A stretch of 64,000 nucleotides of DNA from Spirochaetales bacterium (GCA_003252395.1 QKEL01000010.1:1-64000); one strand, 5' to 3'. Shown: positions 34,843 to 55,369, numbered from the stretch's first letter. The notes: a model not told the origin generated them from the sequence alone. Program-made: numbers and translations.

Positions 34843-34856
34843 TGTGTACGTACACA
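34843..34856. promoter_or_regulatory. Palindromic operator TGTGTACGTACACA upstream of lacI-galTK
   Basis: Perfect 14-bp palindrome immediately downstream of a -10-like TATTGT on the minus strand. Confidence 0.75.
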
Positions 34857-34918
34857 ATACTGCCACAACCGCGTTTCGGTCAAGCAGGAAAAGCGCAAAT
34901 CCGCTATACTCCGTGACA

Positions 34919-36541
34919 ATGCAGCATGAAACGACGATCCGGCTACTGCCGGGAGAAGAGAACGACGAAAAACTGATCCGTTCGCGCATCGAACGGGAAA
35001 TTCGAGACGCCGGGCATAATCCCGGCGAGATCGACTCATGGGTTTTAAAAAAGAAATCAATCGACGCGAGAAAGGGAAAGATAGCCGTGGTGCTTCGCCA
35101 TACGGTCTATATCGGCGAAAAGCCCGGAGCGCCCACCGTTCCCGAATGGCTGCCCGCCAATCCGGCCAAGCGGGCGATAATCGTCGGTTCCGGCCCGGCC
35201 GGGCTCTTTGCCGCGCTTCGGCTCCTGGAAGACGGCATCACGCCCATCGTGATCGAGCGGGGCGAACCGACGGGGCAACGCAAGCGGGATATCGCCGAAA
35301 TCACCCGAACCGGCAGGGTTAACGGCGATTCCAACTACTGCTTCGGCGAGGGCGGCGCGGGAACCTTCTCCGACGGAAAGCTCTATACCCGCTCGAATAA
35401 ACGGGGCGACATCGGCCGTATCCTGGCCATACTGAGCGCCCACGGCGCCGATCCTAGCATACTGACGGACGCGCACCCCCACGTGGGCAGCGACCGGCTC
35501 CCCCGTATCATAAACGCCATCCGGGAAACCATCGTTTCCCGCGGCGGCGAATTCCGCTTCAACGCCCGCTTTACGGGGTTGATCCTCGAAGGCGGCGCGG
35601 TGAGGGGCATTACGGTAAAGCCCGCCACCCAAACGGAAGGGGCTGAATCGGCGGTTTTCGGCGGCGCGGTAATCCTCGCCACGGGGCATTCCGCCGACGA
35701 CGTATACGAGTACCTGGAGGCCGGCCTCGCCCGGGATACCGAGGGAAAGGAAGCCCGCTTCGGCTCGCCCCTGGAGGCAAAAACCTTCGCGGTCGGGGTC
35801 CGGGTAGAGCACCCACGCGCGCTGATCGACGCGATTCAGTACCACGGCGAGCGGGGGGCACAAAACATGCCGGCCGCGGAATACCGCCTGGTGGCGCAGG
35901 AAGACGGCCGCGGGGTCTATTCCTTTTGCATGTGCCCCGGCGGCCTCATCGTGCCCTCCGCCAGCGACGACGGCGGAATCGTCGTGAACGGCATGTCCAG
36001 TTCCGGGCGGAACGGGCGATGGTCCAACGCCGCCTTCGTGGTGGAAACGCGGCCGGAGGACCTGCCGGGCGAATACGGGCGCTACGGCCGACTCGCCGGC
36101 CTTCGCTGGCGGAAAAGCCTCGAGAGCGAGGCCAAGAGCAACGGCTCGGGCCAAAGGGCGCCGGCACAGCGCATGACCGACTTTCTCGCGCGCCGGGCCT
36201 CGGAATCGCTCCCGGAATGCTCGTACAGCCCCGGCGTCGTGCCCTCGCGGCTGGACGAATGGCTCCCGGCCCGGATTTCGGGGCGGCTCGCGGCGGCCTT
36301 CCGCGATTTTGAGCCTTCAATGCGCGGCTTCGTCTGCCCGGAAGCGATCCTGGTCGCGGTGGAAACGAGAACCTCCTCTCCGGTACGGATCCTTCGCGAC
36401 GGCGACAGCCTCGAGTGCGCGACCCTTCCGGGCCTCTATCCCGCGGGAGAGGGGGCGGGCTACGCGGGAGGCATCGTGTCCTCCGCCATGGACGGGGAAA
36501 AATGCGCCGCCGCCTGCGCTCGTGCCCTTCTCGGGAAATAA
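34919..36541 (+). CDS. FAD-dependent oxidoreductase (COG2509-type)
   Basis: AIIVGSGPAGLFAALRLLEDGITPIVIERG, FGEGGAGTFSDGKLYTRSNKRGDI; start set at 34919. Confidence 0.85.
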   Translation: MQHETTIRLLPGEENDEKLIRSRIEREIRDAGHNPGEIDSWVLKKKSIDARKGKIAVVLRHTVYIGEKPGAPTVPEWLPANPAKRAIIVGSGPAGLFAALRLLEDGITPIVIERGEPTGQRKRDIAEITRTGRVNGDSNYCFGEGGAGTFSDGKLYTRSNKRGDIGRILAILSAHGADPSILTDAHPHVGSDRLPRIINAIRETIVSRGGEFRFNARFTGLILEGGAVRGITVKPATQTEGAESAVFGGAVILATGHSADDVYEYLEAGLARDTEGKEARFGSPLEAKTFAVGVRVEHPRALIDAIQYHGERGAQNMPAAEYRLVAQEDGRGVYSFCMCPGGLIVPSASDDGGIVVNGMSSSGRNGRWSNAAFVVETRPEDLPGEYGRYGRLAGLRWRKSLESEAKSNGSGQRAPAQRMTDFLARRASESLPECSYSPGVVPSRLDEWLPARISGRLAAAFRDFEPSMRGFVCPEAILVAVETRTSSPVRILRDGDSLECATLPGLYPAGEGAGYAGGIVSSAMDGEKCAAACARALLGK

Positions 36542-36598
36542 CGGCCGCGGCAACCGTAGGCGACTGACACGGGGCGCGTTCTTTTATATACTCGCCCT

Positions 36599-37615
36599 AT
36601 GGAAAAAGTTTTGGAAATCTGCGCGCGGATCGACGGCATGGCCGAGGCGGTATACGCGGCCTATGCCCGCAAGCCGGAATCGGGCGACCTTGCCGACTTT
36701 TGGCTTCAGCTGGCCGAAGAGGAACGGGAGCACGCCGCCGCGTGGCGGTGGCTGGGCCGATTCGTCGACCGGGCTACCATGGAATCCTATATCGACGATT
36801 ACGACGAGGCGCTCGCCAGGCTTGAGGAGCTCTCAAGCCAAGCCAAGGCGCTCCTCGCCCGTTCCCGCGAAGGAATCTCCCTTTCCGCGATGTTCGCTGA
36901 TACCTGCACCCTCGAGCTGGGAATGCTCGACACGGCCTTAATCCACCTGTTTTCCCTCTTCGACCTTTTAAACCCGGCAGACGCGCGCAAGATCGACTAC
37001 GAAGCCCATATTCGCCATTTCTCGCAGCGGATCAGAGAAAGCGACCTTGGCTCCGGCCTAGCCCCGATGATCGATCGCATTTTCCGCTTTTGGAAGCAGA
37101 ATTCCCTCCTGGCCGAGCAGGCGCAGCGCGATTATCTGACCGGGCTCCTGAACCGCCGGGGCTTTATCGGGAGAACCATGCCCCTCGCGGCGTTGCTCGG
37201 CAGAAGCGGAGGCGTATCGGGGCTCCTCATGATCGATATCGACCGTTTCAAGGCGGTGAACGACACCCACGGTCACGTGACCGGGGACACGGTCCTGTCC
37301 CGGCTGGGCGCGACCATTTCGGGTCACCTGCGGATATCCGACGCCGCGGGGCGTTTTGGGGGGGAAGAATTCACGGTATTCCTGCCCGAGACGGGGCCGG
37401 AAGGCGCCCGTGACGCGGCCGAAAAACTGCGTAAGGCCGTGGAGTCGGACGGAGAAATGCCCGTTCCGATCACCGTCAGCGTGGGCTTCGCCTGGATTAC
37501 ACACGGGGGAAACGCCGCCGAGGAAATGGACAGGCTCCTGAAAACCGCCGACGAAAACCTCTACGCGGCGAAGCGAAACGGGAGAAACCGGACGGAAGGC
37601 TCGCCTGCCGGCTAA
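36599..37615 (+). CDS. GGDEF domain diguanylate cyclase (N-terminal helical, possibly metal-binding, sensory domain)
   Basis: DYLTGLLNRRGF, LMIDIDRFKAVNDTHGHVTGDTVL, RFGGEEFTVFLPE (intact GGEEF); N-terminal EEEREHAAAWRW. Confidence 0.9.
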   Translation: MEKVLEICARIDGMAEAVYAAYARKPESGDLADFWLQLAEEEREHAAAWRWLGRFVDRATMESYIDDYDEALARLEELSSQAKALLARSREGISLSAMFADTCTLELGMLDTALIHLFSLFDLLNPADARKIDYEAHIRHFSQRIRESDLGSGLAPMIDRIFRFWKQNSLLAEQAQRDYLTGLLNRRGFIGRTMPLAALLGRSGGVSGLLMIDIDRFKAVNDTHGHVTGDTVLSRLGATISGHLRISDAAGRFGGEEFTVFLPETGPEGARDAAEKLRKAVESDGEMPVPITVSVGFAWITHGGNAAEEMDRLLKTADENLYAAKRNGRNRTEGSPAG

Positions 37616-37627
37616 GGCGTTCCGGCC

Positions 37628-39475
37628 CTAGGCGTCGCCCACCTCGGAGGGCCCGGACAGGGGTTTGGGCCGCGAAAAGTAGTAGCCCTGGAAATAGTCG
37701 ATATTCAGGTTCTGCAGCGAATCGTATACCTCGTCGTCCTCGACGAATTCGGCCACGGTCTGCTTGTTGGTCTTCTTGCAAAAGTGGACTATCCCCTCCA
37801 CCAGGGTTTTCGCGTTCTCGTCGGACCGAATCCGGCGGATCAGCGAGCCGTCAATTTTAACGATATCGATGGGCAGGTTCAGGAGATTGATATAGTTCGA
37901 GTAGCCCGAACCGAAATCGTCGATCGCGATGCGGAACCCGAAACGGGAAACGTAGTCGATAAACCAAACGCATTTATCCAACTCCACCAACTCGTCGCTC
38001 TCGAGAATCTCGAAGATGATGCGCCCCGCCCGATCGCGGATCATGTGGTGAATTTCTTCCACCAAGGCGATAAAGTCGCTGCGAACGATATCGGCGATGG
38101 AAATGTTCACCGAAACGTTAATATCGAATTCGAGAATCGCCTCGGCGGACTTTCTCAGGATAAACTCGGTAAGGTAATGGTAAAAGCCGGTCGAGCGGGC
38201 TACCTCAAGGTAGGGATAGATCGAGGAGAAGGTTCCGTCCTGCTTTTTAATACGGAGCAAGGCCTCGTACCAGGAAATGCCGGAGCCGTCGGCCTTGTAG
38301 ATCGGCTGGAACACCGCGCGGAAGGTGCCGTTCTCGCGGTTGGTAACCAAGTCCGAGAACCGCATCACGTAGTTATAGGAGGTTTCCCGCTCATGGGTAT
38401 CGTCGGTGAAAACGGTTATGACCGACTGGCTGTGCTCGGCGCGCTTTAGGGCGATATCCGCCATGGAAAGGGGGCTTCGCGTGTCCCCCGGCGAAATGGA
38501 CGTGCCGCCGACCCGGTATACCAGGCGAATGCGGTCCTGTTCCCAGGGAAGGGCCTCCAAGTCCAGGGCGCGCACGATTTCGTCCAAGAGCTGGATGGCG
38601 TTTACCGTGGAAGTCGGCCCGTCGCGCAGGATCAAAACGCCGTATTCGTTGTACTTGAGCTGGTAGGTCCGGTACCCGTACCGTATTTCGTGCTTGGAAA
38701 GCTGTTGCGAGGCGAATTGGGAAATGGTATCCGAAAATTCGTACCCGAAGAGCGCCACGAGATCGCTGAAGTTCTCGATTTTGATGATGGCGAACACGTA
38801 GTGAAGCGTCGGGTCGAGGCTGAAGGTGAGCACTTCCCGGTTTGGCAATCCCGTGGACGGCGAGAACACCATCAGGTCGGTGAGCTTCCCCACCAGATTT
38901 TCCTGCCTCCGCTCGGAATACAGGGAAAAAAGGTAGAGAAGCGCGCTGCCTACCGCGAGGGCAACGAAGGAAACGGGCCCCAAGTAGGTTTTCCAGGGCG
39001 GCAAAAGGCCCAGGGAGGCAAAACCCCACGCCAGGACGAAGGCGAGCGATATCCCGCCGTAGAGGAATGACCCCCGTCTTGAACCGTGCAGTTGCAGGCA
39101 GAAAACGGGTAAAAAGACCATCACCAGGGTCACTACCGACAAGCCCCGTTCTACGTACGCGGATAAGACGAAGGCCACCGCCAGGGAGGCCATCGAAAGC
39201 CACGAAAAGAACTCCACCTTCCCGATAATCCGAATCGCAGCGACCTGGATAAGGGAAATAAGGAGCGGCGCGAGGCAATACAGGGGAAATACGTGCCCGT
39301 ACACCAGGGAAATCACCGCTTCAAGGAGCGGCGGAATGGCGGCGACGGCGGGAAAAACGAAATAAAGAAGCGTTTTTTTGTAGTCCCTCGCCTCGCTCAG
39401 AATCGTCTGAAACCAGGGGGTACGCTTATAATCAAAGGCCCCAAGGCCGACTTTGCGAAAGCGAAGATCCAACAT
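37628..39475 (-). CDS. Membrane EAL domain protein with degenerate GGDEF (c-di-GMP phosphodiesterase candidate)
   Basis: Multiple N-terminal TM; degenerate GGDEF (YQLKYNEYGVLIL); EAL motifs WYEALLRI, FEILESDE, IAIDDFGSGYSNYINL, IVKIDGSLI, AEFVED. Confidence 0.88.
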   Translation of the reverse strand: MLDLRFRKVGLGAFDYKRTPWFQTILSEARDYKKTLLYFVFPAVAAIPPLLEAVISLVYGHVFPLYCLAPLLISLIQVAAIRIIGKVEFFSWLSMASLAVAFVLSAYVERGLSVVTLVMVFLPVFCLQLHGSRRGSFLYGGISLAFVLAWGFASLGLLPPWKTYLGPVSFVALAVGSALLYLFSLYSERRQENLVGKLTDLMVFSPSTGLPNREVLTFSLDPTLHYVFAIIKIENFSDLVALFGYEFSDTISQFASQQLSKHEIRYGYRTYQLKYNEYGVLILRDGPTSTVNAIQLLDEIVRALDLEALPWEQDRIRLVYRVGGTSISPGDTRSPLSMADIALKRAEHSQSVITVFTDDTHERETSYNYVMRFSDLVTNRENGTFRAVFQPIYKADGSGISWYEALLRIKKQDGTFSSIYPYLEVARSTGFYHYLTEFILRKSAEAILEFDINVSVNISIADIVRSDFIALVEEIHHMIRDRAGRIIFEILESDELVELDKCVWFIDYVSRFGFRIAIDDFGSGYSNYINLLNLPIDIVKIDGSLIRRIRSDENAKTLVEGIVHFCKKTNKQTVAEFVEDDEVYDSLQNLNIDYFQGYYFSRPKPLSGPSEVGDA

Positions 39476-39507
39476 ATATAAATACTATCGGTTTGCCCGA
39501 GAAAAAG

Positions 39508-40206
39508 TCAATCAAATATTGTGAGCCGTCGGCCCGCCAATTCCAAGATTCCCTCGTCGCGCATCCTTCCCAATTCCCGGGAAAGCGCGCTCCGGTCCAC
39601 GCACAGGTAGTCCGCCAATTCGCCCCGGGAAAAGGGCAATTCCACGGTCACCGAACGCCTCGGCGCCTGCCCCTCCCCGCCCGGCGCCTCGGCGCGGGAT
39701 AGGCCCCGCTCGCGCGCGAGGGCCGCAGCGTATCCCCGCACCTTATCGCGGATGGAGCGCATGCCGGCGATTTCGATGCGGGAATTGAGCGTGAGGTTTT
39801 TACGCGCCAGCATGCGGACCATGTTTTCGATCAACCGCGCGTGAAAGCCGCAGGAAGACTCGCAGGGCCTCAGCAGGCGGGCGAAGGGGAGAAAGACCGC
39901 CACGACGTCCGTTTCGGCGACCACCGAGACCGGCGCGCGGGGAATGCCGGCGCAGGCGAAGCTTTCCCCGAACAGGGAGCCCGCGCCGAAGGTCGCGATA
40001 ATCATTCGGTTGCCGTCCAAGTCGGTCCGCGTTACGCGAACGCTTCCCGCGGCGACTATGCCGATCGACTCCACGCGGTCGCCCTCGGCGATTACGGTCT
40101 CGCCCCGGGAAAAGCGCCGTTCCCGCGCGCTTACGCACTCGAGCAACACGGCGCTCTCCTCCGGGGTAATTCCCTCGAAAAGACTGATGTTTCCGGGAAG
40201 TATCAT
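39508..40206 (-). CDS. Crp/Fnr family transcriptional regulator
   Basis: cNMP-like N-terminal barrel (FGAGSLFGESFACAGIPRAPVSVVAETD), C-terminal HTH LPFSRGELADYLCVDRSALSRELGRMRDEGIL. Confidence 0.88.
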   Translation of the reverse strand: MILPGNISLFEGITPEESAVLLECVSARERRFSRGETVIAEGDRVESIGIVAAGSVRVTRTDLDGNRMIIATFGAGSLFGESFACAGIPRAPVSVVAETDVVAVFLPFARLLRPCESSCGFHARLIENMVRMLARKNLTLNSRIEIAGMRSIRDKVRGYAAALARERGLSRAEAPGGEGQAPRRSVTVELPFSRGELADYLCVDRSALSRELGRMRDEGILELAGRRLTIFD

Positions 40207-40305
40207 GCCGCTATCCTAGGATATGGGGCCGGACCTGTCAAATCAAAACCGGTCGGCCCCGGGCGCGAAAGGGCTTCCCGGAACCCCGCCGCGCCCGGTA
40301 CGGCC

Positions 40306-41466
40306 TTACCGGTTCTTGGCCTTGGAATACAGGTCGAAGGCGACCGCCCCGAGGAGCACGAAGCCCTTGATTGCCTGCTGCCAGTCTATGCCCACGCCCA
40401 TGATGGACATGCCGTTATTGAGCACGCCCATGAAAAGGCCGCCGACGATGGCGCCGATTACCGTGCCGATACCGCCGGTGGTGGAGGCGCCGCCCACGTA
40501 ACAGGCCGCGATCGCGTCGAGCTCGAAATTCTGCCCGGCCTTCGGCGTGGCCACGTTGAGCCTGGCCGCGAACACCATGCCCGCCAGGGCCGAGATCACG
40601 CCCATATTCACGTAAATCCAGAACATCACCCGTTCGGTCTTGATGCCCGAGAGCTTGGCCGCCTTGGCGTTGCCGCCCAAGGCGTAAATATGCCTTCCGG
40701 GAACCGTGCGCACGGTCACGAAGTGGTACACCGCGATCAGCATCGCCAGGAGCACGAGAATGTTCGGGATGCCCTTGTAGGAGGCGAACACCAGCGTAAA
40801 GGCGTTCACCGCCACGACGAGAAACGCGAGCTTGACGAGAAAGGCCCACAGGGGCAAAAGCTCGAAATCGAACTTCTTCTGCTTGCGCCGCTTATGGATC
40901 TCGTTCACCGCGATTCCCACGGAAATCACCAGGCCGATCAGGATCGTGAGCAGGTGCTTGTCTCCGCCGAAGGGGTCGGGAATGAACCCCGAGGACAGGG
41001 ACTGGAACATCTGGGGGAAGGGACCCTTGGACTGCCCCTGGAGCACCACGAGCGCCAGGCCCCGGAAGATCAGCATGCCCGCCAGCGTCACGATGAACGC
41101 CGGAATTTTCACGTAGGCGATCCAATATCCCTGCCAGGCGCCGATAACGCCGCCGATCAGGAGCGCGATGACCATCGCGTACACCGAGGGTATGCCGTGG
41201 TCGACCATGAGCGTGGCCGAAATGGCGCCGACGAAGGCCACGACGGAGCCGACCGACAGGTCGATATTTCCCGTCAGGATCGCGAGCAGCATGCCGATCG
41301 CCAGGATCAGTATGTAGCTGTTCTGCAGGATCAGGTTGGTCAGGTTGACGGGCCTGAGGAGCACGCCGTCGGTGGTGATCTGGAACAGGATCATCGCGGC
41401 CGCGAGGGCGAGCAGCATCCCGTACTGCCTGAAATTCTTCTTCAATATCTGAAAAACGTTGTTCAT
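40306..41466 (-). CDS. gguB: Multiple-sugar ABC transporter permease (GguB/MmsB/XylH type)
   Basis: LAIGMLLAILTGNIDLSVGSVVAFVGAISATLM, GRHIYALGGNAKAAKLSGI, CYVGGASTTGGIGTVIGAIVGGLFMGVLNNGMSIMGV. Confidence 0.88.
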   Translation of the reverse strand: MNNVFQILKKNFRQYGMLLALAAAMILFQITTDGVLLRPVNLTNLILQNSYILILAIGMLLAILTGNIDLSVGSVVAFVGAISATLMVDHGIPSVYAMVIALLIGGVIGAWQGYWIAYVKIPAFIVTLAGMLIFRGLALVVLQGQSKGPFPQMFQSLSSGFIPDPFGGDKHLLTILIGLVISVGIAVNEIHKRRKQKKFDFELLPLWAFLVKLAFLVVAVNAFTLVFASYKGIPNILVLLAMLIAVYHFVTVRTVPGRHIYALGGNAKAAKLSGIKTERVMFWIYVNMGVISALAGMVFAARLNVATPKAGQNFELDAIAACYVGGASTTGGIGTVIGAIVGGLFMGVLNNGMSIMGVGIDWQQAIKGFVLLGAVAFDLYSKAKNR

Positions 41467-41476
41467 CTTCTTTCCC

Positions 41477-43000
41477 TCACGACTGGATTATGTTTCGCAT
41501 GATTTCTTCCTGGGTGGCGGTTTTGCCGTCCAGTTCCGCGGTGATCCTGCCCTCGCTCATGACGTACAGGCGATCGCTCATGCCGATTACCTCGGGCATC
41601 TCCGAGGATATGAAAACGCAGGCCATGCCCTGGGCGGCCAGCTGATTGATGATCGTGTATATCTCGTACTTCGCGCCCACGTCGATTCCGCGGGTGGGCT
41701 CGTCGAGGATCAATATCTTCGGCTCGGTGAACAGCCACTTCGAAAGCACGACCTTTTGCTGGTTGCCGCCCGAGAGGTTGTTCGTGAGCTGGAGGATGGA
41801 CGGGGTCTTGATGTTGAGGGCCTTCCGGTATTCCTCGGCCTCACGCACCTCCTCGTGCTCGTCGATCACGAGATTCTTCGCCACCTTGCCGAGTTTCGCG
41901 AGGGTCGTGTTGTGCCGCACGTCGTCGATCAGCACGAGCCCGTACTGCTTACGGTCCTCGGTCACGTAGGCGATTCCCCTGGCGATCGCCTTGGGAATCG
42001 TGCCCAGGTCCGCCTTCTTGCCGTCTATATAGGCCTCGCCCGAGATATTCCGCCCGTAGGAGCGGCCGAAAACGCTCATGGCCAGCTCCGTGCGGCCGGC
42101 GCCCATGAGACCCACGAGGCCGATCACCTCGCCGGCGCGCACCTTAAAGTTCGCGTTGTCTATCATCTTGCGGCCCGGATCGTCCGGGTGGAATACGTTC
42201 CAGTTTTTCACCTCGAATACCACGTCGCCCACGGCGCTGGTCCGCTTGGGAAACATATCGGTAATCTCGCGGCCGACCATGCCCCGGATAATCCGCTCTT
42301 CGGAAATGGGCCCGTCGCCGACCTTCAGGGTCTCGATGACCCGGCCGTCGCGGATGATCGTGATTGAGTCGGAGACCTTCGCGACCTCGTTCAGTTTATG
42401 GGATATGAGAACCGAGGAAATGCCGCGGTTCTTGAGCTCAAGCAGCAGCTTGAGCAGGTTCTCGCTGTCTTTTTCGTTCAGCGCCGCCGTCGGCTCGTCG
42501 AGTATCAGGAGCCGAACGTCCTTGGAAAGCGCTTTGGCGATCTCTATGATCTGCTGTTTGCCCACGCCGAGCTTTCCGACGGGGGTATTGGGGTTCTCTT
42601 TCAGGCCCAGCATGGCCATGAGCCGTACCGCCTCTTCCCGGGTTTTGTCCCAGTCGATAACCTGAAGGCGGGCCTTTTCGTTGCCGATGAAAATGTTCTC
42701 GGCGATGGACAGATAGGGGCTCAGCGCGAGTTCCTGGTGGATAATGACTATCCCCGCCCTCTCGCTGTGCTTGATATCGCTGAACGCGCACTCGCGCCCG
42801 TCCATCAAAATTTGGCCTTCGTAGGTCCCGTGCGGGTAGGTTCCGCTCAGGATATTCATGAGCGTCGACTTACCCGCGCCGTTCTCGCCGACGAGGGCGT
42901 GTATCTCCGCCTTTTCCACGCGAAGACTCACGGCGTCGAGCGCCTTTACGCCCGGAAAAACCTTGGTGATGTCCTTCATCTCCAAAAGGGTCTCAGACAT
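41477..43000 (-). CDS. gguA: Multiple-sugar ABC transporter ATP-binding protein (GguA/MglA-like, two ABC domains)
   Basis: [93 protein letters not shown]. Confidence 0.92.
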
Positions 43001-43017
43001 TCGGAATCCTTCCTCTT

Positions 43018-43073
43018 TGAAAAAAAATAGGAGTTCAAGCCCAAAGCTCAAACGAACTTTGGACCCAAACTCC
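43018..43073 (-). terminator. Intercistronic rho-independent terminator between SBP and ATPase genes
   Basis: Minus strand GGAGTTTGGGTCCAAAGTTCGTTTGAGCTTTGGGCTTGAACTCC followed by TATTTTTTTT. Confidence 0.65.
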
Positions 43074-43142
43074 CGGTAAAACTGTGGGGTCTCGCGAAAC
43101 CGCCCCCTGCCCTACGGCCCGAGGCGGTCCCTTAAAGCCCGC

Positions 43143-44219
43143 TTACTTCAGCTGGTCGGCGGTGTAGTAGCCGGAATCGACCAGGGCGGAAGTGATATTG
43201 TCCTTGGTCACGATGGTGGACTGCAGGAGGTAGGAGGGAACGACCTTCACGCCGTTGTCGTAGGTCTTGGTGTCGTTAACCTCGGCGGCCTTGCCCTGGA
43301 GGAGCGCGGTGGCCATGGCGACGGCCTGCTTCGCGAGGGAGCGGGTGTCCTTGAAGATCGTGGAATACTGCTCGCCGGCGAGGATCGACTTGACGGAGGG
43401 AACTTCCGCGTCCTGTCCGGAAACGAAGGGCATCGGGGTGCCGCCCTTGCCGTAGCCTACGCCCTTGAGGGAGGAAAGGATACCGATGGAGATACCGTCA
43501 TAGGGGGAGAGGACCGCGTTGATCTTCTTGTCGGTGTAGAACGCCGAAAGGAGGTTGTCCATGCGGGCCTGGGCGGTCGCGCCGTCCCAGCGAAGGGTGG
43601 AAACCTTGTCCATGCCCATCTGGCCGGAACCGATGATGACCTTGCCGCTCTTGATGTAGGGATCGAGCACGCTCATGGCGCCGTTATAGAAGAAGTAGGC
43701 GTTGTTGTCGTCGGGCGAGCCGCCGAACAGTTCCATGTAGAAGGGACCCTTCGCGGTCTTCAGGTTGAGCGCGGTTTCGAGGGTGGAAGCCTGCTGCACG
43801 CCGACCTTGAAGTTGTCGAAGGTCACGTAGTAGCTGACGTAGGGGGAATTGCGGATCAGGCGATCGTAGGCGATAACGGGAATCTTCGACTCGTTGGCCT
43901 TCTAGAGCACCTTGGTCACGGACTCGCCGTCGATTGCGGCGATAACGAGCACGTCGACGCCCCTGGTAATCATGTTTTCGAGCTGGGCGATCTGGTTCTC
44001 GACCACGTCTTCGGCGTACTGAAGGTCAACCTTGAAACCGAGCTTCTCGAATTCCGCCTTCATGTTGTTGCCGTCGGCGATCCAGCGCGCGGACGATTTG
44101 GTGGGCATCGCGATACCGATGGTCCCCATCTTTCCGGATGAGCCGGAGTCTTTCGAACCGCCCGCAAAGGCCGACGCCACAAGGGCGAGACCGGCGATAA
44201 CTGCGATCAATTTCTTCAT
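43143..44219 (-). pseudogene. chvE: ChvE-type multiple-sugar-binding protein gene interrupted by an in-frame TAG
   Basis: ORFs 43902-44219 and 43143-43826 share one frame; only TAG at 43902-43904 separates ...GESVTKVL from [34 protein letters not shown]...; joined length about 358 codons fits ChvE-like SBPs. Confidence 0.85.
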
Positions 44220-44261
44220 TTAAATTCCTCCTCGGATTGATTTGCCCAAAGGGCAAATTAC

Positions 44262-44273
44262 GTTAACGTACAC
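44262..44273. promoter_or_regulatory. LacI-type operator GTTAACGTACAC (ggu O3)
   Basis: Within acgttaacgtacacgta, repeated identically at 44326-44342. Confidence 0.65.
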
Positions 44274-44294
44274 GTAGTGATACGTCATTGTAAC

Positions 44295-44310
44295 GCGGTA
44301 ACGTTAACGC
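44295..44310. promoter_or_regulatory. LacI-type operator GCGGTAACGTTAACGC (ggu O2)
   Basis: Imperfect palindrome; shares TAACGTTAACGCTTG with the araB intragenic palindrome. Confidence 0.65.
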
Positions 44311-44327
44311 TTGTCCGGGATACTCAC

Positions 44328-44339
44328 GTTAACGTACAC
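44328..44339. promoter_or_regulatory. LacI-type operator GTTAACGTACAC (ggu O1)
   Basis: Lies directly downstream of the predicted promoter 44350-44378. Confidence 0.7.
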
Positions 44340-44349
44340 GTACTTTCTC

Positions 44350-44378
44350 AGATTAGGGCATTTTCCCGATGCTGTCAA
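44350..44378 (-). promoter_or_regulatory. Sigma70-like promoter of the SBP-gguA-gguB operon
   Basis: Minus strand TTGACA (44373-44378), 17 bp, TAATCT (44350-44355). Confidence 0.75.
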
Positions 44379-44518
44379 ATAATATGATAGGTAATTTTTT
44401 TACCGCAAGAATCGCCAGATTGAGGCAGAACGTCTTCGCGGGCGAGGGTCCTTGCCGGGGCGGAAGGGAACGGCGGAGCGAAGCCGGAGCCCGCCGGGGC
44501 CCGGCACCGCCCCAGAGA

Positions 44519-46375: not shown

Positions 46376-46386
46376 GGGGGAACGGC

Positions 46387-47184: not shown

Positions 47185-47236
47185 GCGCCGCGCGGCGCCA
47201 GAACCAGAAGCATAACGTCGGAGGCCCTGAGAAACC

Positions 47237-47929
47237 GTGGCGAGCATATACGTGGTGGAAGACAGCGAAAACATCCGCGAGGCGGTACGCGGCTATCTCG
47301 AGCTCGACGGGCACGAGGTGGCCGAGTTCGATAAACTCGCGGACGCGAGAAAATCCCTCGAAACCGCCGCGCCCGACCTGCTCCTCCTGGACGTAATGCT
47401 CCCCGACGGGGACGGTTTTCTCTTCGCCAAAAAGCTGAGGCAAACCAAGGCCATTCCCGTCATTTTCCTGACCGCGCGGGCGGACGAATCGGACCGGATT
47501 ACCGGCTTGGAACTCGGCGCCGACGACTACGTGGTAAAGCCCTTTTCGCCCAAGGAGCTCGTATTGCGGGTAAACGCCGTATTGCGCAGGGTCCAGGGAC
47601 GGAACGGGCCCCTCGCGGCGCGTCCGGCGCGCTACCTGCTGAGCGGCGCGGCCTTGGAGCTCGATCGCGCGAACCACCGCCTTACCCTCGACGGGGCGGC
47701 GCTCAGCCTTACCGCCGCGGAGTGGACGATCCTTTCCTACCTCGCGGAAAAGTGCCCGCAGGTTTTCAGCCGGGCGCAGCTCCTCCAGGCCTGCCTCGAT
47801 TCCATCGCCGACGGCTCGGAACGCACCATCGACACCCACGTCAAGAACATACGGGCCAAGCTCCGCAACCCCGAGTGGATCGAAACGGTACGGGGCTTCG
47901 GCTACCGTTTTTCGGGGCGGCCGGAATGA
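47237..47929 (+). CDS. OmpR/PhoB family response regulator (GTG start)
   Basis: IYVVEDSENIREAVRGYLEL, LLLLDVMLPDGDGFL, VVKPFSPKEL; winged helix SDGSERTIDTHVKNIRAKLRNPEWIETVRGFGYRF-like C-terminus. Confidence 0.93.
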   Translation: MASIYVVEDSENIREAVRGYLELDGHEVAEFDKLADARKSLETAAPDLLLLDVMLPDGDGFLFAKKLRQTKAIPVIFLTARADESDRITGLELGADDYVVKPFSPKELVLRVNAVLRRVQGRNGPLAARPARYLLSGAALELDRANHRLTLDGAALSLTAAEWTILSYLAEKCPQVFSRAQLLQACLDSIADGSERTIDTHVKNIRAKLRNPEWIETVRGFGYRFSGRPE

Positions 47930-49218: not shown

Positions 49219-49274
49219 AAAAAATCGCTTTGCGGCGGGGATCGGACAGGCTACACTGACGGGGCGGCGTCGCG

Positions 49275-49721
49275 ATGAACGGGGTCGGCGAAAAGAAATC
49301 GCGTTACGGGGGCTTTATCGTGGGAAAGTCTGTAAAAGGCATTATACGGATGGTGGGGATTTGGGATTTATTGCTTACCCTCCCCTTCGCACTGCCGGTC
49401 GTGAACGGTTACGCCATCGGCGCCCTACGCTCTCTCAATGGCCTGCTTTCGCCGGCCGCGCCGTTCCCGGAATTTAGCGGCTTTCACCTCTTTTTCGTAC
49501 AGTTATTCGGAATTCTCGCCGTATTATGGGCCGCGGTGCGCGTTCATACGGGCGAAGCCTATCTCGGAGCCTACGATTCGGCGGGAAGGTTGGTGGTGGG
49601 CTCCTGCATGATCGCGTTTACCCTCCAGGGCGGAGGGTTGGTTCCCGCGGCGTTTTCGGCGTCGGAATTCGGTTTCGCCCTCGTGCAGGCCTACGCGCTG
49701 AGTCGCGGGGTAAAGGGCTGA
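49275..49721 (+). CDS. Hypothetical membrane protein
   Basis: 148-aa ORF with about 4 TM segments. Confidence 0.6.
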   Translation: MNGVGEKKSRYGGFIVGKSVKGIIRMVGIWDLLLTLPFALPVVNGYAIGALRSLNGLLSPAAPFPEFSGFHLFFVQLFGILAVLWAAVRVHTGEAYLGAYDSAGRLVVGSCMIAFTLQGGGLVPAAFSASEFGFALVQAYALSRGVKG

Positions 49722-49742
49722 GAAAGGGCGCAAACCGTTCGA

Positions 49743-50096
49743 TTAGCCTTTCCGCTTTCCGCAGCCCGATCCCTTTACCGTTCCGCCGAACGCGATCATG
49801 ACGCCCAGGATAAAGCCCAGGTTATACGTCGCTCCGGTATTGTGCACCTCGTACACGTTCACGTTCTTGTTGAAAAGCGAAACGATAAACGCGATGAACG
49901 CGATTATCCCATGCCAGAGGCCGAGAAGGAAGCCCGCGGGGGCCTTCTCGCCCGCGCGAACCGTGGCGACGAGCTCGTTTTGCCCCGCTGCGCAGGAAGC
50001 GAGAACAAAAGCGGCCGACAGCGCGAGGAACAGCATGCCGGCGCGGCGAACGGCCCGATCGCCGCGGGATTGAATCGAAACGCCTATCTTTTTCAT
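49743..50096 (-). CDS. Small putative membrane lipoprotein
   Basis: Lipobox-like LASCAAG; GLWHGIIAFIAFIVSLFNKNVNVYEVHNTGATYNLGFILGVMIAFGG. Confidence 0.6.
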   Translation of the reverse strand: MKKIGVSIQSRGDRAVRRAGMLFLALSAAFVLASCAAGQNELVATVRAGEKAPAGFLLGLWHGIIAFIAFIVSLFNKNVNVYEVHNTGATYNLGFILGVMIAFGGTVKGSGCGKRKG

Positions 50097-50167
50097 GCCC
50101 TCACTCTATACCTCGCGCCGAGGAATTTCAAATGCCGTTCGCATCGCAGGCTACCGCAAGGGCGCGC

Positions 50168-50210
50168 GCAAAAAAAATGGCGCGCACCGGGAGGAGTCGG
50201 TACGCGCCGG
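50168..50210 (-). terminator. Rho-independent terminator of the ara operon
   Basis: Minus strand GGCGCGTACCGACTCCTCCCGGTGCGCGCC followed by ATTTTTTTT. Confidence 0.7.
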
Positions 50211-50258
50211 AGAGAGGGATAATTACTTAGGCAAAGACCGCGGAACCGTTCCGATCGG

Positions 50259-51011
50259 TCAATGCGCGCCGCCCTGGCCGTAGTAGGCGTTGGGGCCGTG
50301 CTTACGCAGGTAATGCTTGTCCACGATATAATGCGGAAGCCCCGTCGCCCCGGGATTCGCCTGGAGGGTGAGCAGGGCCATGCGGGCCATTTCCTCGAGC
50401 ACCGCGCCGTTGTACACCGACTTGGCGGCGTTGGCCCCCCAGGCGAAGGGACCGTGCCCGCCCACGAGCACCATGGTCACCTCGGAAGGCTTCATGGGGC
50501 CGCACTGGCCGGGAATGCCCTCGAGAAAGGCCTTCACGATCAACTTGCCCGTTTCCAGCTCGTAATCCCGTTCCACCGCTTCCTTCGAAAGGTAGGGCGT
50601 GCAGGGAACGGGAAGCTGGATATGGTCGGCGTGGGTGGTACCGAACAGCGGTATCGCCCTGCAGGCTTGGGCCCAGGCCGTGGCGTGCGTGGAGTGGGTA
50701 TGGATAATGCCCCCCACGGCCGGCTTCCCGGAACCCGACCCCGCGTTGAAATCGCGATAGAGGACCCGGTGGGTCGGCGTGTCCGAAGAAGGGTTTAGTT
50801 TCCCCTCGACGATCGTACCCTCAAGGTCAACCACGACCATATCCCCGGGTTTCAGCTCGGGATACGGCACGCCGGAAGGCTTGATCGCGAAGACGGCGCG
50901 CGAGGCGTCGTAGGCGGAGACGTTTCCCCAGGTGTATAGGGCAAGGCCGCGGGCGGGAATTTCCATGTTCGCCGCCCACGCCTCTTCCTTAAGAGAGGCG
51001 TAAACCGACAC
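50259..51011 (-). CDS. araD: L-ribulose-5-phosphate 4-epimerase
   Basis: LALYTWGNVSAYD, IKPSGVPYPELKPGDMVVVDLEG, SDTPTHRVLYR, GGIIHTHSTHATAWAQA, FGTTHADHI. Confidence 0.95.
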   Translation of the reverse strand: MSVYASLKEEAWAANMEIPARGLALYTWGNVSAYDASRAVFAIKPSGVPYPELKPGDMVVVDLEGTIVEGKLNPSSDTPTHRVLYRDFNAGSGSGKPAVGGIIHTHSTHATAWAQACRAIPLFGTTHADHIQLPVPCTPYLSKEAVERDYELETGKLIVKAFLEGIPGQCGPMKPSEVTMVLVGGHGPFAWGANAAKSVYNGAVLEEMARMALLTLQANPGATGLPHYIVDKHYLRKHGPNAYYGQGGAH

Positions 51012-51017
51012 GGTACC

Positions 51018-52529
51018 TTACCTCCAGGCGGCGGCGTTCCACCGCAGCTCGTTCCGGAACGAGGGAACCGTGGTTCCCTTGCCGATGGAAACGAACTCGA
51101 TCCCGACCATCTCCGCCCAGTCGCGGATCATGTCGGCGGTAAGGATATTCGAGAAGGCGGTGTGGTGCCCGCCCCCCGCGAGAATCCAGCTTTCGGCGGA
51201 GGTCGTCATGTCAGGGAGGGGCTTCCAGAGCACGCGGGCCACGGGAAGCTTCGGGAAGGGCTTGGCGGGCTTAACCACTTCCACCTCGTTGAGCACGCAG
51301 CGGAAGCGGTTGCCGAAGTCGACCACCGAGGCGCAAATCGCGGCGCCGGGGTTCGAGTCGAACACGAGGCGGGCGGGGTCTTCCTTGTCGCCGATCCCGA
51401 GCTGATGCACCTCGAGTTTGGGCTTTCCCGCGGCGATGGAGGGGCAGACTTCAAGCATGTGCGCGCCGAGGATAAGGCCGTCTTCCTTTTTCGTGCCGAA
51501 GTGATAGGTATAGTCTTCCATGAAGGAATCGCCGAAACCGGCCCCCTTGGCGGCGCCAAGCCCGGCCGACATGACCTTGAAGGTGCGTACCATGGCGGAA
51601 ACCTTCCAGTCGCCCTCGCCGGCGAAGCCGAACCCGTCGGCCATGAGCCGCTGGACGGCGAGGCCGGGAAGCTGCTTCATGCCGTGCAGGTCCTGGAAGT
51701 TCGTCGTGAAGGCGTTGGCGCCCTTGTCGGCGAAAAAGGCGCGGAAGGCGATTTCGATCCGAGCCTGCTCGCGGATATGGGCGAGGGCGAAGGCCTTGTC
51801 GGCGCCCCACGCGATCTCGTACTCGCCCTCGTAGGTCTTTACCAGGGCGTCGATTTCCGCGTCGGTTACCTTGGCCATATAGGCCACCAGGTCGCCGATC
51901 CCGTAATAGGGCACGGACCAGCCGAGCTTGATCATGGCCTCGACCTTGTCGCCGTCGGTAACCGACACCTCGCGCATATTGTCGCCGAAGCGGACGATCC
52001 GGAGCGCCTTTCCGTCCGCAACCGCGATTCCCGCGCGCATCCACTTGGCGATCCGCGTCCTCGTCTCGCTATCGCTCCAGTGGCCGGCGATTACCTTGCG
52101 GGGCACGTCCATGCGGGCGGTAATAAAGCCGAATTCCCGGTCGCCGTGGGCAGACTGGTTCAGGTTCATGAAGTCCATATCGATGGTATCGTAGGGTAGG
52201 TCACGGTTGAACTGGGTGTTGAACTGCAGGAGCGGCTTCTTGTAGGAGGAAAGGCCGGCGATCCACATCTTGGCGGGGCTAAAGGTGTGCATCCAGGCGA
52301 TAACGCCCGCGCAATCGCGCTCGGCGTTGGCCTTCTCGAGCTCGGTCCGGATCGCGTCCGGGGTGAGCAGGGTGGGCTTCCACACGATCTTGCAGGGCAT
52401 GGAGGGGTCGGCGTTCAGGGCCTCTACCACCTTCTTGGAGTCCTCGGCCACCTGGCGAAGGGTTTCGTCGCCGTAAAGGTCCTGGCTTCCGGTTATGAAC
52501 CAAAACTCGTATTTCTTCAGGTCAATCAT
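51018..52529 (-). CDS. araA: L-arabinose isomerase
   Basis: FWFITGSQDLYGDETLRQVAEDSKKVVEALN, GVIAWMHTFSPAKMWIAGL, LLQFNTQFNRDLPYDTIDMDFMNLNQSAHGDREFGFI. Confidence 0.97.
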   Translation of the reverse strand: MIDLKKYEFWFITGSQDLYGDETLRQVAEDSKKVVEALNADPSMPCKIVWKPTLLTPDAIRTELEKANAERDCAGVIAWMHTFSPAKMWIAGLSSYKKPLLQFNTQFNRDLPYDTIDMDFMNLNQSAHGDREFGFITARMDVPRKVIAGHWSDSETRTRIAKWMRAGIAVADGKALRIVRFGDNMREVSVTDGDKVEAMIKLGWSVPYYGIGDLVAYMAKVTDAEIDALVKTYEGEYEIAWGADKAFALAHIREQARIEIAFRAFFADKGANAFTTNFQDLHGMKQLPGLAVQRLMADGFGFAGEGDWKVSAMVRTFKVMSAGLGAAKGAGFGDSFMEDYTYHFGTKKEDGLILGAHMLEVCPSIAAGKPKLEVHQLGIGDKEDPARLVFDSNPGAAICASVVDFGNRFRCVLNEVEVVKPAKPFPKLPVARVLWKPLPDMTTSAESWILAGGGHHTAFSNILTADMIRDWAEMVGIEFVSIGKGTTVPSFRNELRWNAAAWR

Positions 52530-54226
52530 TTCGTTTCTCCTTTAACCTCAGATTCGATAAACGCGCCAAGGCGCTTGAATTTTCCGTAGAGCCCGTTATA
52601 GACCGCCACCGCGGCGGGATTGGGCTTATGGACCCGCTCGGTTCCCGCGGAAAGGGCTTTCTGCGCGGTGAATAGGTCCGGGTAGAGCCCCGCGGCCGTT
52701 GCGGCGAATACCGCCGCGCCGATCGCGCAGGACTGGTCGCCCGCGGTAACCTGAATCTCGCGATTGGTCACGTCCGCGAGGATCTGCATGCCGAGCTTGC
52801 TCTTCCGGGCCACGCCGCCTATGGCCATAATCCGCTCGATCTTCACGCCGCCCGCCTCGAAGGCCTCGATAATCGCGCGGGCGCCGAACGCGGTGGACTC
52901 AAGAAGGGCGCGCATGACCATGGGGGCGTCGGTCCCGAGCTTGATCCCGGTAATCGCGGCGGCGAGCTTTTGGTTCGCGAAGGGGGTACGACGACCGTTA
53001 ACCCAGTCCAGGGCCACCGGCGAGGATTCGCTCGGGGGAATGGATTCCGCCGCCTCCTCCAATCGCCTGACCAGGTTCTTTTCGATGGCTTCCACGTCCA
53101 GTCCCTTGGCGGCGGGATCGGCGGCCACGAGGTTCTTGACCGGCCACATGAGCAGGTTCCTGAACCAGGCGTAGTAATCGCCGTACGCGGACTGTCCGGC
53201 CTCGTAGCCGATCCAGTCGGCGACCACGGAACCGTCTACCTGGCCGCAAATGCCGGGGACCAGGGCCTCGCTCTCGCCCGCCTTCGGCTTTTCCGCGATG
53301 ATAATGTCGCAGGTTGAGGTACCGATGCTCTTCACGAGGGTTCCGGGGGCAGCGTCGCCGCCGACCGCGCCGATATGCGCGTCGTAGGCGCCCACGCACA
53401 CGATGGTCGACTCGCTCAGGCCCAGGCTCTTGGCCCACGCGGGGGTAAGCTTTCCCGCCACGGTTTCGGTGGTCCAGGTCTCGCTGCCAAGCGTATCCCG
53501 CAGCGCGCCGAGCCGCGGGTCCAGCCGGTCAAAGAACGCCCTTGGGGGATAGCCGCCCCATTCCTTGTGCCACATGATCTTATGGCCCGCGGCGCAGCGG
53601 CTTCGCTTAATGGCCTCGGGGCTTTCGGTTCCCGTCAGCGTCGCGGTGATCCAGTCGCAGTGCTCGACCGCCGTATAGGCCGCCTTGGCGACCCGGTCGT
53701 TGCCCCGAAGGGTATGCAGGGTTTTCGCCCAAAACCATTCGGACGAATACACGCCGCCCATATACTTGGTAAAATCCGTTCCGCCCCAGGTACGGCACAG
53801 CGCGTTTATCTCGTCCGCTTCCTTTATAGCGGTATGGTCCTTCCAGAGAATGAACATCGCGTCGGGATCCTCGGCGAACTCCGGCAAGAGGGAAAGCGGC
53901 GTGCCGTTCCTGTCCGCGAAACAGGGCGTTGAGCCCGTGGTGTCGATCGAGATGGCGCGAACCTTTCCGGTTACGGAAGCGTTAACGTTAACGCTTGCCT
54001 GCGCAAGGGCGCCCTTCACGGCTAGGGTAAGGCTCTCCGTGTAGTCTTTCGGATGCTGCCTGAACCTGTCCGCCTTGGGATCGCAGTATGCCCCGGATTT
54101 CCAGCGGGGATAGTACGCGACATGCTGGCCCGCGACGTGGCCGTCGGCGGCGTCCAGAATCACGACCCGTACCGAGTCAGACCCGAAGTCCGCCCCCAGT
54201 ACGTAATGCTCGTCTTTGTTCATCAT
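52526..54226 (-). CDS. araB: Ribulokinase
   Basis: YVLGADFGSDSVRVVILDAADG, GGVYSSEWFWAKTLHTLR, VCVGAYDAHIGAVGGDAAPGTLVKSIGTSTCDI; ATGA overlap with araA. Confidence 0.96.
   Translation of the reverse strand: MMNKDEHYVLGADFGSDSVRVVILDAADGHVAGQHVAYYPRWKSGAYCDPKADRFRQHPKDYTESLTLAVKGALAQASVNVNASVTGKVRAISIDTTGSTPCFADRNGTPLSLLPEFAEDPDAMFILWKDHTAIKEADEINALCRTWGGTDFTKYMGGVYSSEWFWAKTLHTLRGNDRVAKAAYTAVEHCDWITATLTGTESPEAIKRSRCAAGHKIMWHKEWGGYPPRAFFDRLDPRLGALRDTLGSETWTTETVAGKLTPAWAKSLGLSESTIVCVGAYDAHIGAVGGDAAPGTLVKSIGTSTCDIIIAEKPKAGESEALVPGICGQVDGSVVADWIGYEAGQSAYGDYYAWFRNLLMWPVKNLVAADPAAKGLDVEAIEKNLVRRLEEAAESIPPSESSPVALDWVNGRRTPFANQKLAAAITGIKLGTDAPMVMRALLESTAFGARAIIEAFEAGGVKIERIMAIGGVARKSKLGMQILADVTNREIQVTAGDQSCAIGAAVFAATAAGLYPDLFTAQKALSAGTERVHKPNPAAVAVYNGLYGKFKRLGAFIESEVKGETK
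53977..53996. promoter_or_regulatory. 20-bp perfect palindrome AAGCGTTAACGTTAACGCTT inside araB, putative intragenic operator
   Basis: aagcgttaac|gttaacgctt; shares a 15-mer with the ggu promoter region. Confidence 0.65.
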
Positions 54227-55239
54227 ACGAGATTCTCCTTGAAAAATATGTCCAGCGGCATCGCTATCTCGGGATCGGTCCGTTCCTCAAGCACGATGTT
54301 TCTGTACAGTTGCGTTACGGCGATACGGCCCTGCTCTTCGGGACGCTGCGAAATAAGGCAATCGATCCGCCCGTCCCGCAGGCATTCAACGTTTTCGGGA
54401 ACCAGGTCGTACCCGATAATCTTGCGGCCGTCCTTCATTCCCCGGCGGTACACCCGCTCGGCGACAACGTGGCCCACCGAGGACACGGCGAAAAAACCCT
54501 GAATCGCCGGCCGCTCGTTTAGGGTGCGGTCCAATATGGCCAGCATGTCGGATTCATGGTTTTCCGGGCACACCAGGTCGATAATCTCGACCTTCGGGTT
54601 CCCGGAAAACCAGGCGGTAAAGCCCCGGGCACGCTCGTTCAGGTTGAAGGCTTCCGTGTACGGGCGAACCACGGCGAAGGGACCTTCCGACGCGGACAGG
54701 AATTCCATGACCCGCCCGGCGAGAAAGCCGCCCCGGAACGGGTCTTGGGCGATCGTGGTTATCCCGTGGGCTCCCGGCAACGGGGAGTCGATAATGCAAT
54801 AGGGGACCGCCGGGGGCCTTTCGGAAAGAAGCACCAGAGTCTCTTCCTGCATGACCGGCGCGATAATATAGCCGTCGCACCCGGAGTCCAGCATGGCCTG
54901 ATACGCCGCGTCCAGCGAAAAACGGTCAGGCCGCTCGAAGGGGTACAGTTTCGTTTCGATCGAGAAAACCGAGAACGACGCCGCGGCCCGCACGATCGCG
55001 TCGTACATCAGGCGCCAATACCGGCTTTCGCCTTCCAGGCCGGGAATGAGTATTCCCAGCTGATAACCCCGGTTTCTCTTCAAGTGGCGCGCCAGAGGAT
55101 TGGGCTGATACCCCTCTTCCTCGATAATCGCGCGTATGCGGTTACGAGTCGCCTCAGAAACGCGGCCGCGGTCATGCAGTACGCGATCTACCGTACCGAT
55201 CGACACTCCGGCTCGCTTTGCGATCTCGGTTACCGTCAT
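54223..55239 (-). CDS. LacI family regulator at head of ara operon (AraR/GalR-like)
   Basis: MTVTEIAKRAGVSIGTVDRVLHDRGRVSEATRNRIRAIIEEEGYQPNPLARHLKRN; paralogue of 33801-34826; ATGA-coupled to araB. Confidence 0.93.
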   Translation of the reverse strand: MTVTEIAKRAGVSIGTVDRVLHDRGRVSEATRNRIRAIIEEEGYQPNPLARHLKRNRGYQLGILIPGLEGESRYWRLMYDAIVRAAASFSVFSIETKLYPFERPDRFSLDAAYQAMLDSGCDGYIIAPVMQEETLVLLSERPPAVPYCIIDSPLPGAHGITTIAQDPFRGGFLAGRVMEFLSASEGPFAVVRPYTEAFNLNERARGFTAWFSGNPKVEIIDLVCPENHESDMLAILDRTLNERPAIQGFFAVSSVGHVVAERVYRRGMKDGRKIIGYDLVPENVECLRDGRIDCLISQRPEEQGRIAVTQLYRNIVLEERTDPEIAMPLDIFFKENLV

Positions 55240-55264
55240 TTCCCTCCCCCCGTTTCATCCTTGC

Positions 55265-55276
55265 GTGTACCTACAC
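55265..55276. promoter_or_regulatory. Operator GTGTACCTACAC downstream of the ara-operon promoter
   Basis: Near-palindrome next to minus-strand TTGACG-17-TATTAT. Confidence 0.65.
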
Positions 55277-55369
55277 CCACATAATACCCCGGTTGGTTGA
55301 CCGCGTCAATCGCGGTTTATAGCGAGAATGCTTGTAATGGTACGAAAAAGGTAGATATAATATTCAACT

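What the first reader, a model, noticed from the sequence alone, without database searches (positions are those of the whole stretch)
34843..55276. One operator family (GTTAAC/GTGTAC half-sites) ties together the gal, ggu (ChvE-type) and ara transcription units
Seen directly: TGTGTACGTACACA at 34843 (lacI-galTK), GTTAACGTACAC at 44262 and 44328 and GGTAACGTTAAC at 44297 (SBP-gguAB), AAGCGTTAACGTTAACGCTT at 53977 (inside araB) and GTGTACCTACAC at 55265 (lacI-araBAD). All can be written as mixes of half-sites GTTAAC and GTGTAC around a central CpG or its variant. In the three promoter regions the site lies directly downstream of a recognisable -35/-10. Two paralogous LacI regulators (33801-34826 and 54223-55239) with nearly identical HTHs (IAKRAGVSIGTVDRV) are encoded beside gal and ara. 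Inference: an overlapping GalR/GalS-like regulon in which both regulators converge on one broad-specificity arabinose/galactose transporter.
Basis: partly seen in the sequence, partly recalled or inferred. Interest (0 to 1): 0.78.

Follow-up and report, generated by a model that had tools for sequence, protein, structure and literature searches.

The report
Shared repressor operator for arabinose/galactose genes
In a spirochaete, two sister LacI-type repressors and one short palindromic DNA code tie together the genes for using arabinose, using galactose and importing both sugars, including a conserved copy of the code hidden inside the araB gene; it is a real but recognisable kind of bacterial sugar regulon.

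Summary
All six sites are where stated. A matrix trained only on other species scores them 13.3-24.6 bits; the next best position in the window scores 8.9. The exact motif GTKWACGTWMAC occurs four times in the 3.41-Mb genome, all in this window, and a motif model finds nothing else genome-wide. The promoter operators are conserved in the genus and beyond (Treponema, Cryosericum, a Verrucomicrobiota MAG).

In several single-LacI relatives one regulator sits over lacI-araBAD, chvE-gguAB and galTK, so joint control looks ancestral. Relatives add an alpha-L-arabinofuranosidase and an AraM-like dehydrogenase: an arabinose regulon.

GTGTAC and GTTAAC are two discrete half-sites (NT-4/NT-3 = GT or TA in 74 of 80 halves), both used under a single LacI.

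The araB-internal site is not incidental: it is held at codons 79-82 in four species through an amino-acid change, three others carry one about 310 bp further on, and simulated araB genes almost never make one. I favour an elongation roadblock sparing lacI but limiting araBAD.

Not shown: that both regulators bind ggu. The gal paralog and its operator differ at one contact residue and the outer base. New variant of a known kind.

The parts
34843..34856 (.). gal operator TGTGTACGTACACA, overlapping the -10 of the lacI-galTK promoter
   Evidence: 24.6 bits; conserved in G003 and G002
34854..34883 (-). lacI-galTK promoter, TTGACC-18-TATTGT
33801..34826 (-). LacI-family regulator, gal paralog (341 aa, HTH + Peripla_BP_4)
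31658..33808 (-). fused GalT-GalK (716 aa)
   Evidence: GalP_UDP_transf N and C, galactokinase, GHMP domains
44258..44277 (.). ggu operator 1 (GTTAACGTACAC core 44262-44273)
   Evidence: 21.1 bits; conserved in G003
44293..44312 (.). ggu operator 2 (GGTAACGTTAAC core 44297-44308), weakest
   Evidence: 13.3 bits; poorly conserved in G003
44324..44343 (.). ggu operator 3 (GTTAACGTACAC core 44328-44339), just downstream of the -10
   Evidence: 17.4 bits; conserved in G003, outer pair 66 bp apart here and 65 bp there
44350..44378 (-). chvE-gguAB promoter, TTGACA-17-TAATCT
   Evidence: read from sequence; same layout in G003; not found by the consensus scan
43143..44219 (-). ChvE-type multiple-monosaccharide binding protein gene, interrupted by an in-frame TAG at 43902-43904
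41477..43051 (-). GguA ATP-binding protein
   Evidence: NF040905 834.6 bits, cut-off 810
40306..41466 (-). GguB permease
   Evidence: NF040906 566 bits, cut-off 450
55261..55280 (.). ara operator (GTGTACCTACAC core 55265-55276), between -10 and the lacI start
   Evidence: 22.8 bits; present, some as variants, in 18 orthologous loci
55281..55309 (-). lacI-araBAD promoter, TTGACG-17-TATTAT
54223..55239 (-). LacI-family regulator, ara paralog (338 aa)
53977..53996 (.). operator inside araB (AAGCGTTAACGTTAACGCTT, codons 79-82), 1,284 bp from the ara promoter operator
   Evidence: (20.6 bits)
52526..54226 (-). AraB ribulokinase
51018..52529 (-). AraA L-arabinose isomerase
50259..51011 (-). AraD L-ribulose-5-phosphate 4-epimerase
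   Evidence: NF006047 306.5 bits, cut-off 257

Best explanation
This is an arabinose/galactose regulon run by two paralogous LacI-family repressors that share one operator vocabulary: a 12-bp core of two half-sites (each GTGTAC or GTTAAC) around CG, or CC/GG when both halves are GTGTAC, usually flanked by GC. Without sugar, a dimer on the core covers the start region of lacI-araBAD, chvE-gguAB and lacI-galTK and blocks initiation; binding of an arabinose- or galactose-type sugar releases it. Ancestrally one LacI governed all three units; in this clade a second copy went with a separated galTK unit. The ggu transporter is most likely controlled mainly by the ara-type repressor, with some cross-binding by the gal paralog. 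The operator inside araB is a real regulatory site and most likely an elongation roadblock: it lets lacI, first gene of the autoregulated operon, be made while limiting araBAD. Shown by sequence: the sites, their conservation, gene linkage, genome-wide exclusivity, and that the araB site exceeds coding expectation. Inferred: repression, effectors, which repressor binds which site, roadblock rather than looping.
For: Six sites separated from background with a matrix trained on other species. All four exact core matches of the genome lie in this window and model R1 finds no other place. An operator or variant lies upstream of the orthologous lacI in all 18 loci. Operators precede chvE in G003, G008, G006, G057, G068 and the Verrucomicrobiota MAG L022, and lacI-galTK or galTK in G003, G002 and G009. 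One-LacI layouts: G004 and G011 have lacI-araBAD-chvE-gguAB-galTK in one cluster; G006 has lacI-araBAD and chvE-gguAB-galTK on one contig. Extra sites in relatives precede arabinofuranosidase, AraM-like dehydrogenase and sugar-binding-protein genes. Both half-site types occur under a single LacI (G004, L022). Half-site coupling 56 GT / 18 TA / 5 mixed / 1 other. araB-internal site: same codons in W, G003, G002, G001 although G001 reads VYVN instead of VNVN with a GTGTAC half; G004, G006, G011 have one at about +545; it is the best-scoring site reported in the G001 and G004 genomes, or within rounding of it; at most 0.2% of simulated araB genes reach even 11.5 bits and none 14.6.
Against: No binding, expression or effector data exist. 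Homology alone does not prove repression or the sugars sensed. The gal paralog has His where the others have Arg/Glu and its operators lack the C/G outer base, which argues against full overlap. Codon permutation within each araB gives weaker support in some species (32/300 in G002), because the encoded VNVN itself favours the motif. G008, G010, G005, G009 and G007 have no araB-internal site, so it is not essential. Coupling counts use related sequences, so the Fisher value overstates significance.
Confidence: 0.8

Rival explanations
1. Specialised paralogs: the operators look alike by descent, but the gal LacI binds only the gal site (outer T/A flank) and the ara LacI binds ara, ggu and araB sites (outer C/G flank); there is no functional convergence on ggu.
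For: All three gal-paralog operators (W, G003, G002) carry T/A on both outer sides (TGTGTACGTACACA) while the other operators used have C/G on at least one side; gal paralogs have GRGHVS against RGRVS or RGEVS elsewhere; all three ggu operators have C/G on both sides.
Against: Recognition helix and hinge are nearly identical; single-LacI relatives place galTK under ara-type operators; on the promoter side the outer T falls in the -10 hexamer; only one clade of gal paralogs, so one event.
Confidence: 0.45
2. The araB-internal operator works by DNA looping with the promoter operator, like lacO1-lacO2, rather than as a roadblock.
For: A strong operator 1.27-1.62 kb from the promoter operator in seven species; looping with an operator inside the first structural gene is established for lac.
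Against: The repressors are 337-341 aa and end like PurR, without room for the LacI tetramerisation helix (LacI features from general knowledge); spacing is long and changes by about 310 bp between clades without obvious phasing.
Confidence: 0.25
3. The araB-internal palindrome is a coding accident (Val-Asn-Val-Asn written with common codons).
For: VNVN by itself raises the chance of the motif; 32 of 300 codon permutations of G002 araB reach its score.
Against: VNVN/VYVN lies in an indel-rich loop and occurs only in species with the site; G001 changes a residue yet keeps an operator using the other allowed half-site; a second position in G004/G006/G011; 0 of 3,000 simulated araB genes reach 14.6 bits.
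Confidence: 0.05
4. The motif belongs to another factor (for example the CRP-type protein at 39508-40206).
For: A CRP/FNR-type gene lies next to gguB; a homolog lies on the same contig as gguB in G003 and as galTK in G002.
Against: The motif tracks LacI genes, including Cryosericum and Verrucomicrobiota loci, has the even-palindrome, mostly central-CG structure of LacI-family operators (PMC4052901), and lies directly before the lacI start in the orthologous loci.
Confidence: 0.03

Closest known systems
E. coli GalR/GalS isorepressor regulon
   Same: Two LacI-family paralogs with shared operators over sugar catabolism and an ABC sugar importer
   Different: Neither protein is a GalR or GalS ortholog by NCBIfam cut-offs; different operator; arabinose genes included; each paralog is linked to its own catabolic operon
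Bifidobacterial AraQ (LacI-family regulator of araBDA; PMC5928203)
   Same: LacI-family repressor of arabinose catabolism and of its own gene, operator downstream of or overlapping the -10
   Different: AraQ is a global regulator of central metabolism; here the regulon is three units; motif not compared here; protein not tested for orthology
E. coli PurR roadblock in purB (He and Zalkin 1992, cited in PMC4052901 and PMC10310618)
   Same: LacI-family operator within a coding region downstream of the promoter
   Different: Here the site lies in the second gene, behind the repressor's own gene, and has changed position between clades; roadblock not demonstrated
lac operator O2 inside lacZ
   Same: Secondary operator within the coding sequence
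   Different: Distance 1.27-1.62 kb, no sign of a tetramerisation helix
B. subtilis CcpA sites acting by elongation block in the ara and xyl operons (PMC3463425)
   Same: LacI-family protein blocking elongation in arabinose genes
   Different: CcpA is the catabolite regulator, not the substrate-specific repressor

Membership tests
LacI/GalR family transcription regulators | N-terminal LacI HTH plus periplasmic-binding-protein-like effector domain | tested here: met
   Gal paralog: PF00356 45.3 bits (cut-off 27) and PF13407 93.9; ara paralog: PF00356 64.2 bits, over cut-off, effector part matched to LacI-type and sugar-binding structures
LacI/GalR family transcription regulators | Even palindromic operator, usually with central CG | tested here: met
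   Core GTKWACGTWMAC; centre CG in 26 of 40 sites, CC/GG in 14; family norm from PMC4052901
LacI/GalR family transcription regulators | Autoregulation through an operator at the regulator gene | tested here: inconclusive
   Operator directly upstream of both lacI genes; sequence only, binding not tested
GalR/GalS (E. coli type) | Equivalog score for GalR or GalS | tested here: not met
   GalR 36.4 and 34.6 bits against 557; GalS 27.2 and 34.1 against 555
GalR/GalS-like overlapping regulon | Two regulators acting on the same operators | tested here: inconclusive
   Identical recognition-helix core but different outer contact residue and flank; needs binding data
GguAB-ChvE multiple-monosaccharide transporter | GguA and GguB equivalog cut-offs | tested here: met
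   834.6/810 and 566/450
GguAB-ChvE multiple-monosaccharide transporter | Intact ChvE equivalog | tested here: not met
   Frame broken by TAG; C-terminal fragment alone 366 bits against 460; relatives intact
Intragenic LacI-family operator (purB/lacO2 type) | Operator in coding sequence affecting downstream expression | tested here: inconclusive
   Site present and conserved beyond coding expectation; effect on expression not testable here

The most novel reading that the evidence does not exclude
In an autoregulated lacI-araBAD operon, selection maintains a repressor operator inside araB, at one of two alternative places in different clades, so that the repressor's own gene and the catabolic genes behind it are repressed to different degrees from one promoter; the repressor reads two discrete coupled half-sites (GTGTAC or GTTAAC) rather than independent bases.
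Probability: 0.45. Interest if true: 0.55.

Novelty: new variant of a known kind. Interest (0 to 1): 0.42.

Why it matters
The large LacI-family regulon survey I checked covers seven phyla, spirochaetes not among them (PMC4052901), and I found no paper on this regulon in the searched library. It gives a compact, testable operator code with a regulator duplication caught while the ancestral single-regulator state is still present in sister species, which makes the question of how duplicated repressors share or split operators directly testable. The araB-internal operator is of a rare kind (less than 1% of LacI-family sites lie in coding regions, PMC4052901) with unusually clear signs of selection on DNA rather than protein.

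Tried and rejected
A CRP-type factor as owner of the motif was rejected because the motif tracks LacI. 'One half-site per regulator' was rejected because single-LacI loci (G004, L022) use both. Pure coding accident for the araB site was rejected on codon and simulation tests, with the caveat that permutation within G002 alone is weak. An internal promoter just upstream of araB was looked for: only one weak match, within lacI at 54890-54863, not pursued. The LacI tree groups the three gal paralogs (100/100) and the W-G003-G002-G001 ara type (100/100) but does not resolve their order, so the timing of the duplication is open. No structure predictions were run, as they would not separate the remaining hypotheses.

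Full report
What was claimed. Six palindromes built from GTTAAC and GTGTAC half-sites were said to link the gal, ggu and ara units of this window, with two LacI paralogs beside gal and ara.

Check of the observation. Every site is at the stated position. The gene calls are right: LacI-family proteins, a fused GalT-GalK, GguA and GguB above their curated cut-offs, AraB and AraA above theirs, and AraD above the cut-off of one AraD subfamily model. To avoid circularity I built a 20-bp matrix only from promoter operators of other genomes and scanned the window: the six sites take the first six ranks (24.6 to 13.3 bits), then there is a gap to 8.9; first-order Markov sequence gives 0.025 hits of 14 bits or more per 64 kb. 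In the whole 3.41-Mb genome the exact core GTKWACGTWMAC has four matches and all lie in this window; a sequence-only covariance model reports five places at E<=10, again only here (it scores just the 150 best candidates of a first look). The weakest site, 44297, is below that list. In this genome the regulon therefore seems confined to this roughly 20-kb stretch (assembly 93% complete).

Conservation. A scan of GTDB genomes with the ara LacI gave relatives in Spirochaetales, Treponema, Candidatus Cryosericum and a Verrucomicrobiota MAG. In the 18 orthologous loci examined an operator or variant lies just before the lacI start: GTGTAGGTACACGC in several Spirochaetales and Cryosericum, GTTAACGTACACGC in the Verrucomicrobiota MAG, GTGTACGTACACGC or close variants in some Treponema, and GCGTGAACGAACACGC in rumen Treponema whose recognition helix reads VSTGT instead of VSIGT. 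Operators also precede chvE in G003 (two, 65 bp apart; 66 bp in the window), G008, G006, G057, G068 and the Verrucomicrobiota MAG, and lacI-galTK or galTK in G003, G002 and G009. In some relatives further operators precede an alpha-L-arabinofuranosidase, an AraM-like iron-type dehydrogenase and sugar-binding proteins. This fixes the physiological theme as arabinose, with galactose attached.

Ancestral state. In G004 and G011 one lacI is followed by araBAD, chvE-gguAB and galTK in one cluster; in G006 lacI-araBAD and chvE-gguAB-galTK lie on one contig; G008 has the same gene order plus a second lacI. In W (the window), G003 and G002 galTK sits apart with its own lacI, and these three gal paralogs form one clade (100/100). 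Joint control by one repressor is thus the simplest ancestral state, and the two-regulator arrangement looks derived. The order of branches is not resolved.

Operator code. Sites with a CC or GG centre contain no GTTAAC half. Sequences are related, so the counts are not independent. Both half-site types occur in loci with one LacI of this type (G004, L022), which rejects one half-site per regulator. The published rule that Arg at position 20 of LacI-family proteins pairs with G at NT-6 (PMC2978694) fits the invariant outer G of the core.

Which repressor binds where. The recognition-helix core is identical and the hinges nearly so, so cross-binding is plausible. However, the gal paralogs have His (GRGHVS) where the other homologs have Arg or, in one, Glu; by alignment this is the position of LacI His29 (alignment from memory, a lead). 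Their operators have T/A on both outer sides, whereas all three ggu operators have C/G on both. On one side the T also belongs to the -10 hexamer. I therefore regard the ara-type LacI as the main regulator of ggu and leave full overlap open.

Promoter geometry. ara: TTGACG-17-TATTAT, operator 4 bp after the -10. gal: TTGACC-18-TATTGT, operator overlapping the -10. ggu: TTGACA-17-TAATCT, first operator 10 bp after the -10 and two more in the leader at 31 and 35 bp spacing (the -10 is weak and was not found by the scan; layout kept in G003). All positions fit repression. LacI-family site pairs have a distance peak at 32 bp (PMC4052901).

The araB-internal operator. It lies at codons 79-82 in W, G003, G002 and G001, in a loop that is variable and indel-rich elsewhere. 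G004, G006 and G011 lack this site but have one at about +545, encoded by ACTYT/ACSYT instead of the usual AAYT. The +234 species form one group in the AraB tree (97/99). In G001 and G004 the internal site is the best-scoring site reported genome-wide. Simulated araB genes drawn from the alignment with local codon usage reach 11.5 bits in 0 of 1,500 (site-free profile) and 0.2% (all-species profile) and never 14.6. Codon permutation within each gene reaches the observed score in 4, 5, 32, 1, 0, 3 and 2 of 300 trials for W, G003, G002, G001, G004, G006 and G011. G008 and G009 instead have two promoter-proximal operators, and G010 and G005 only one.

Mechanism. Initiation block at three promoters is the default reading. 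For the internal site I prefer an elongation roadblock: the proteins are 337-341 aa and align to PurR-length chains, so a LacI-type tetramerisation helix is unlikely; spacing is long and differs by about 310 bp between clades; and the site lies behind the lacI gene, where it could lower araBAD without silencing the repressor's own gene. PurR at purB is the precedent (PMC4052901, PMC10310618). Looping remains possible. None of this is shown by experiment.

Caveat on the transporter. The window's chvE has an in-frame TAG at codon 106, where five relatives have Glu, with intact reading on both sides. It may be a real recent loss or a sequence error; either way the regulatory argument does not depend on it.

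Verdict. A real, well-conserved LacI-family arabinose/galactose regulon, ordinary in kind, with two less ordinary points: a coupled half-site code and a selected operator inside araB that has changed place. The literature checked holds no description of it, but that search was limited.

Noticed in passing
window 43902-43904 (minus strand): Premature in-frame TAG in the chvE gene at codon 106; five relatives have an intact frame. Real loss or sequence error not decided.
   Followed up: partly
window 31658-33808: GalT and GalK are fused in one 716-aa protein; near full-length matches to the fusion occur in G003, G002, G008, G004 and G011.
   Followed up: partly
L025-L033 (rumen Treponema): LacI orthologs with VSTGT instead of VSIGT in the recognition helix go with a shifted operator, GCGTGAACGAACACGC: a possible natural change of the recognition code.
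   Followed up: no
L019, L021, L022: Candidatus Cryosericum and a Verrucomicrobiota MAG carry a 60-62% identical LacI with araBAD and the same operator, suggesting transfer of operon and operator together (or a binning error in the MAG).
   Followed up: no
G001:C9 about 42343 (L149), G006:C76 about 13979 (L136), L142, L143, L151: Additional operators before an alpha-L-arabinofuranosidase, an AraM-like dehydrogenase and sugar-binding proteins followed by a membrane sensor-like gene.
   Followed up: partly
window 44356-44372: The ggu promoter spacer holds GGGAAAATGCCC on the coding strand, partly kept in G003; may be a site of another regulator such as the CRP-type protein at 39508-40206.
   Followed up: no
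G016:C102 (L068): A LacI homolog in another genus of the family also shows one in-frame TAG; probably unrelated, but worth a check for TAG readthrough.
   Followed up: no
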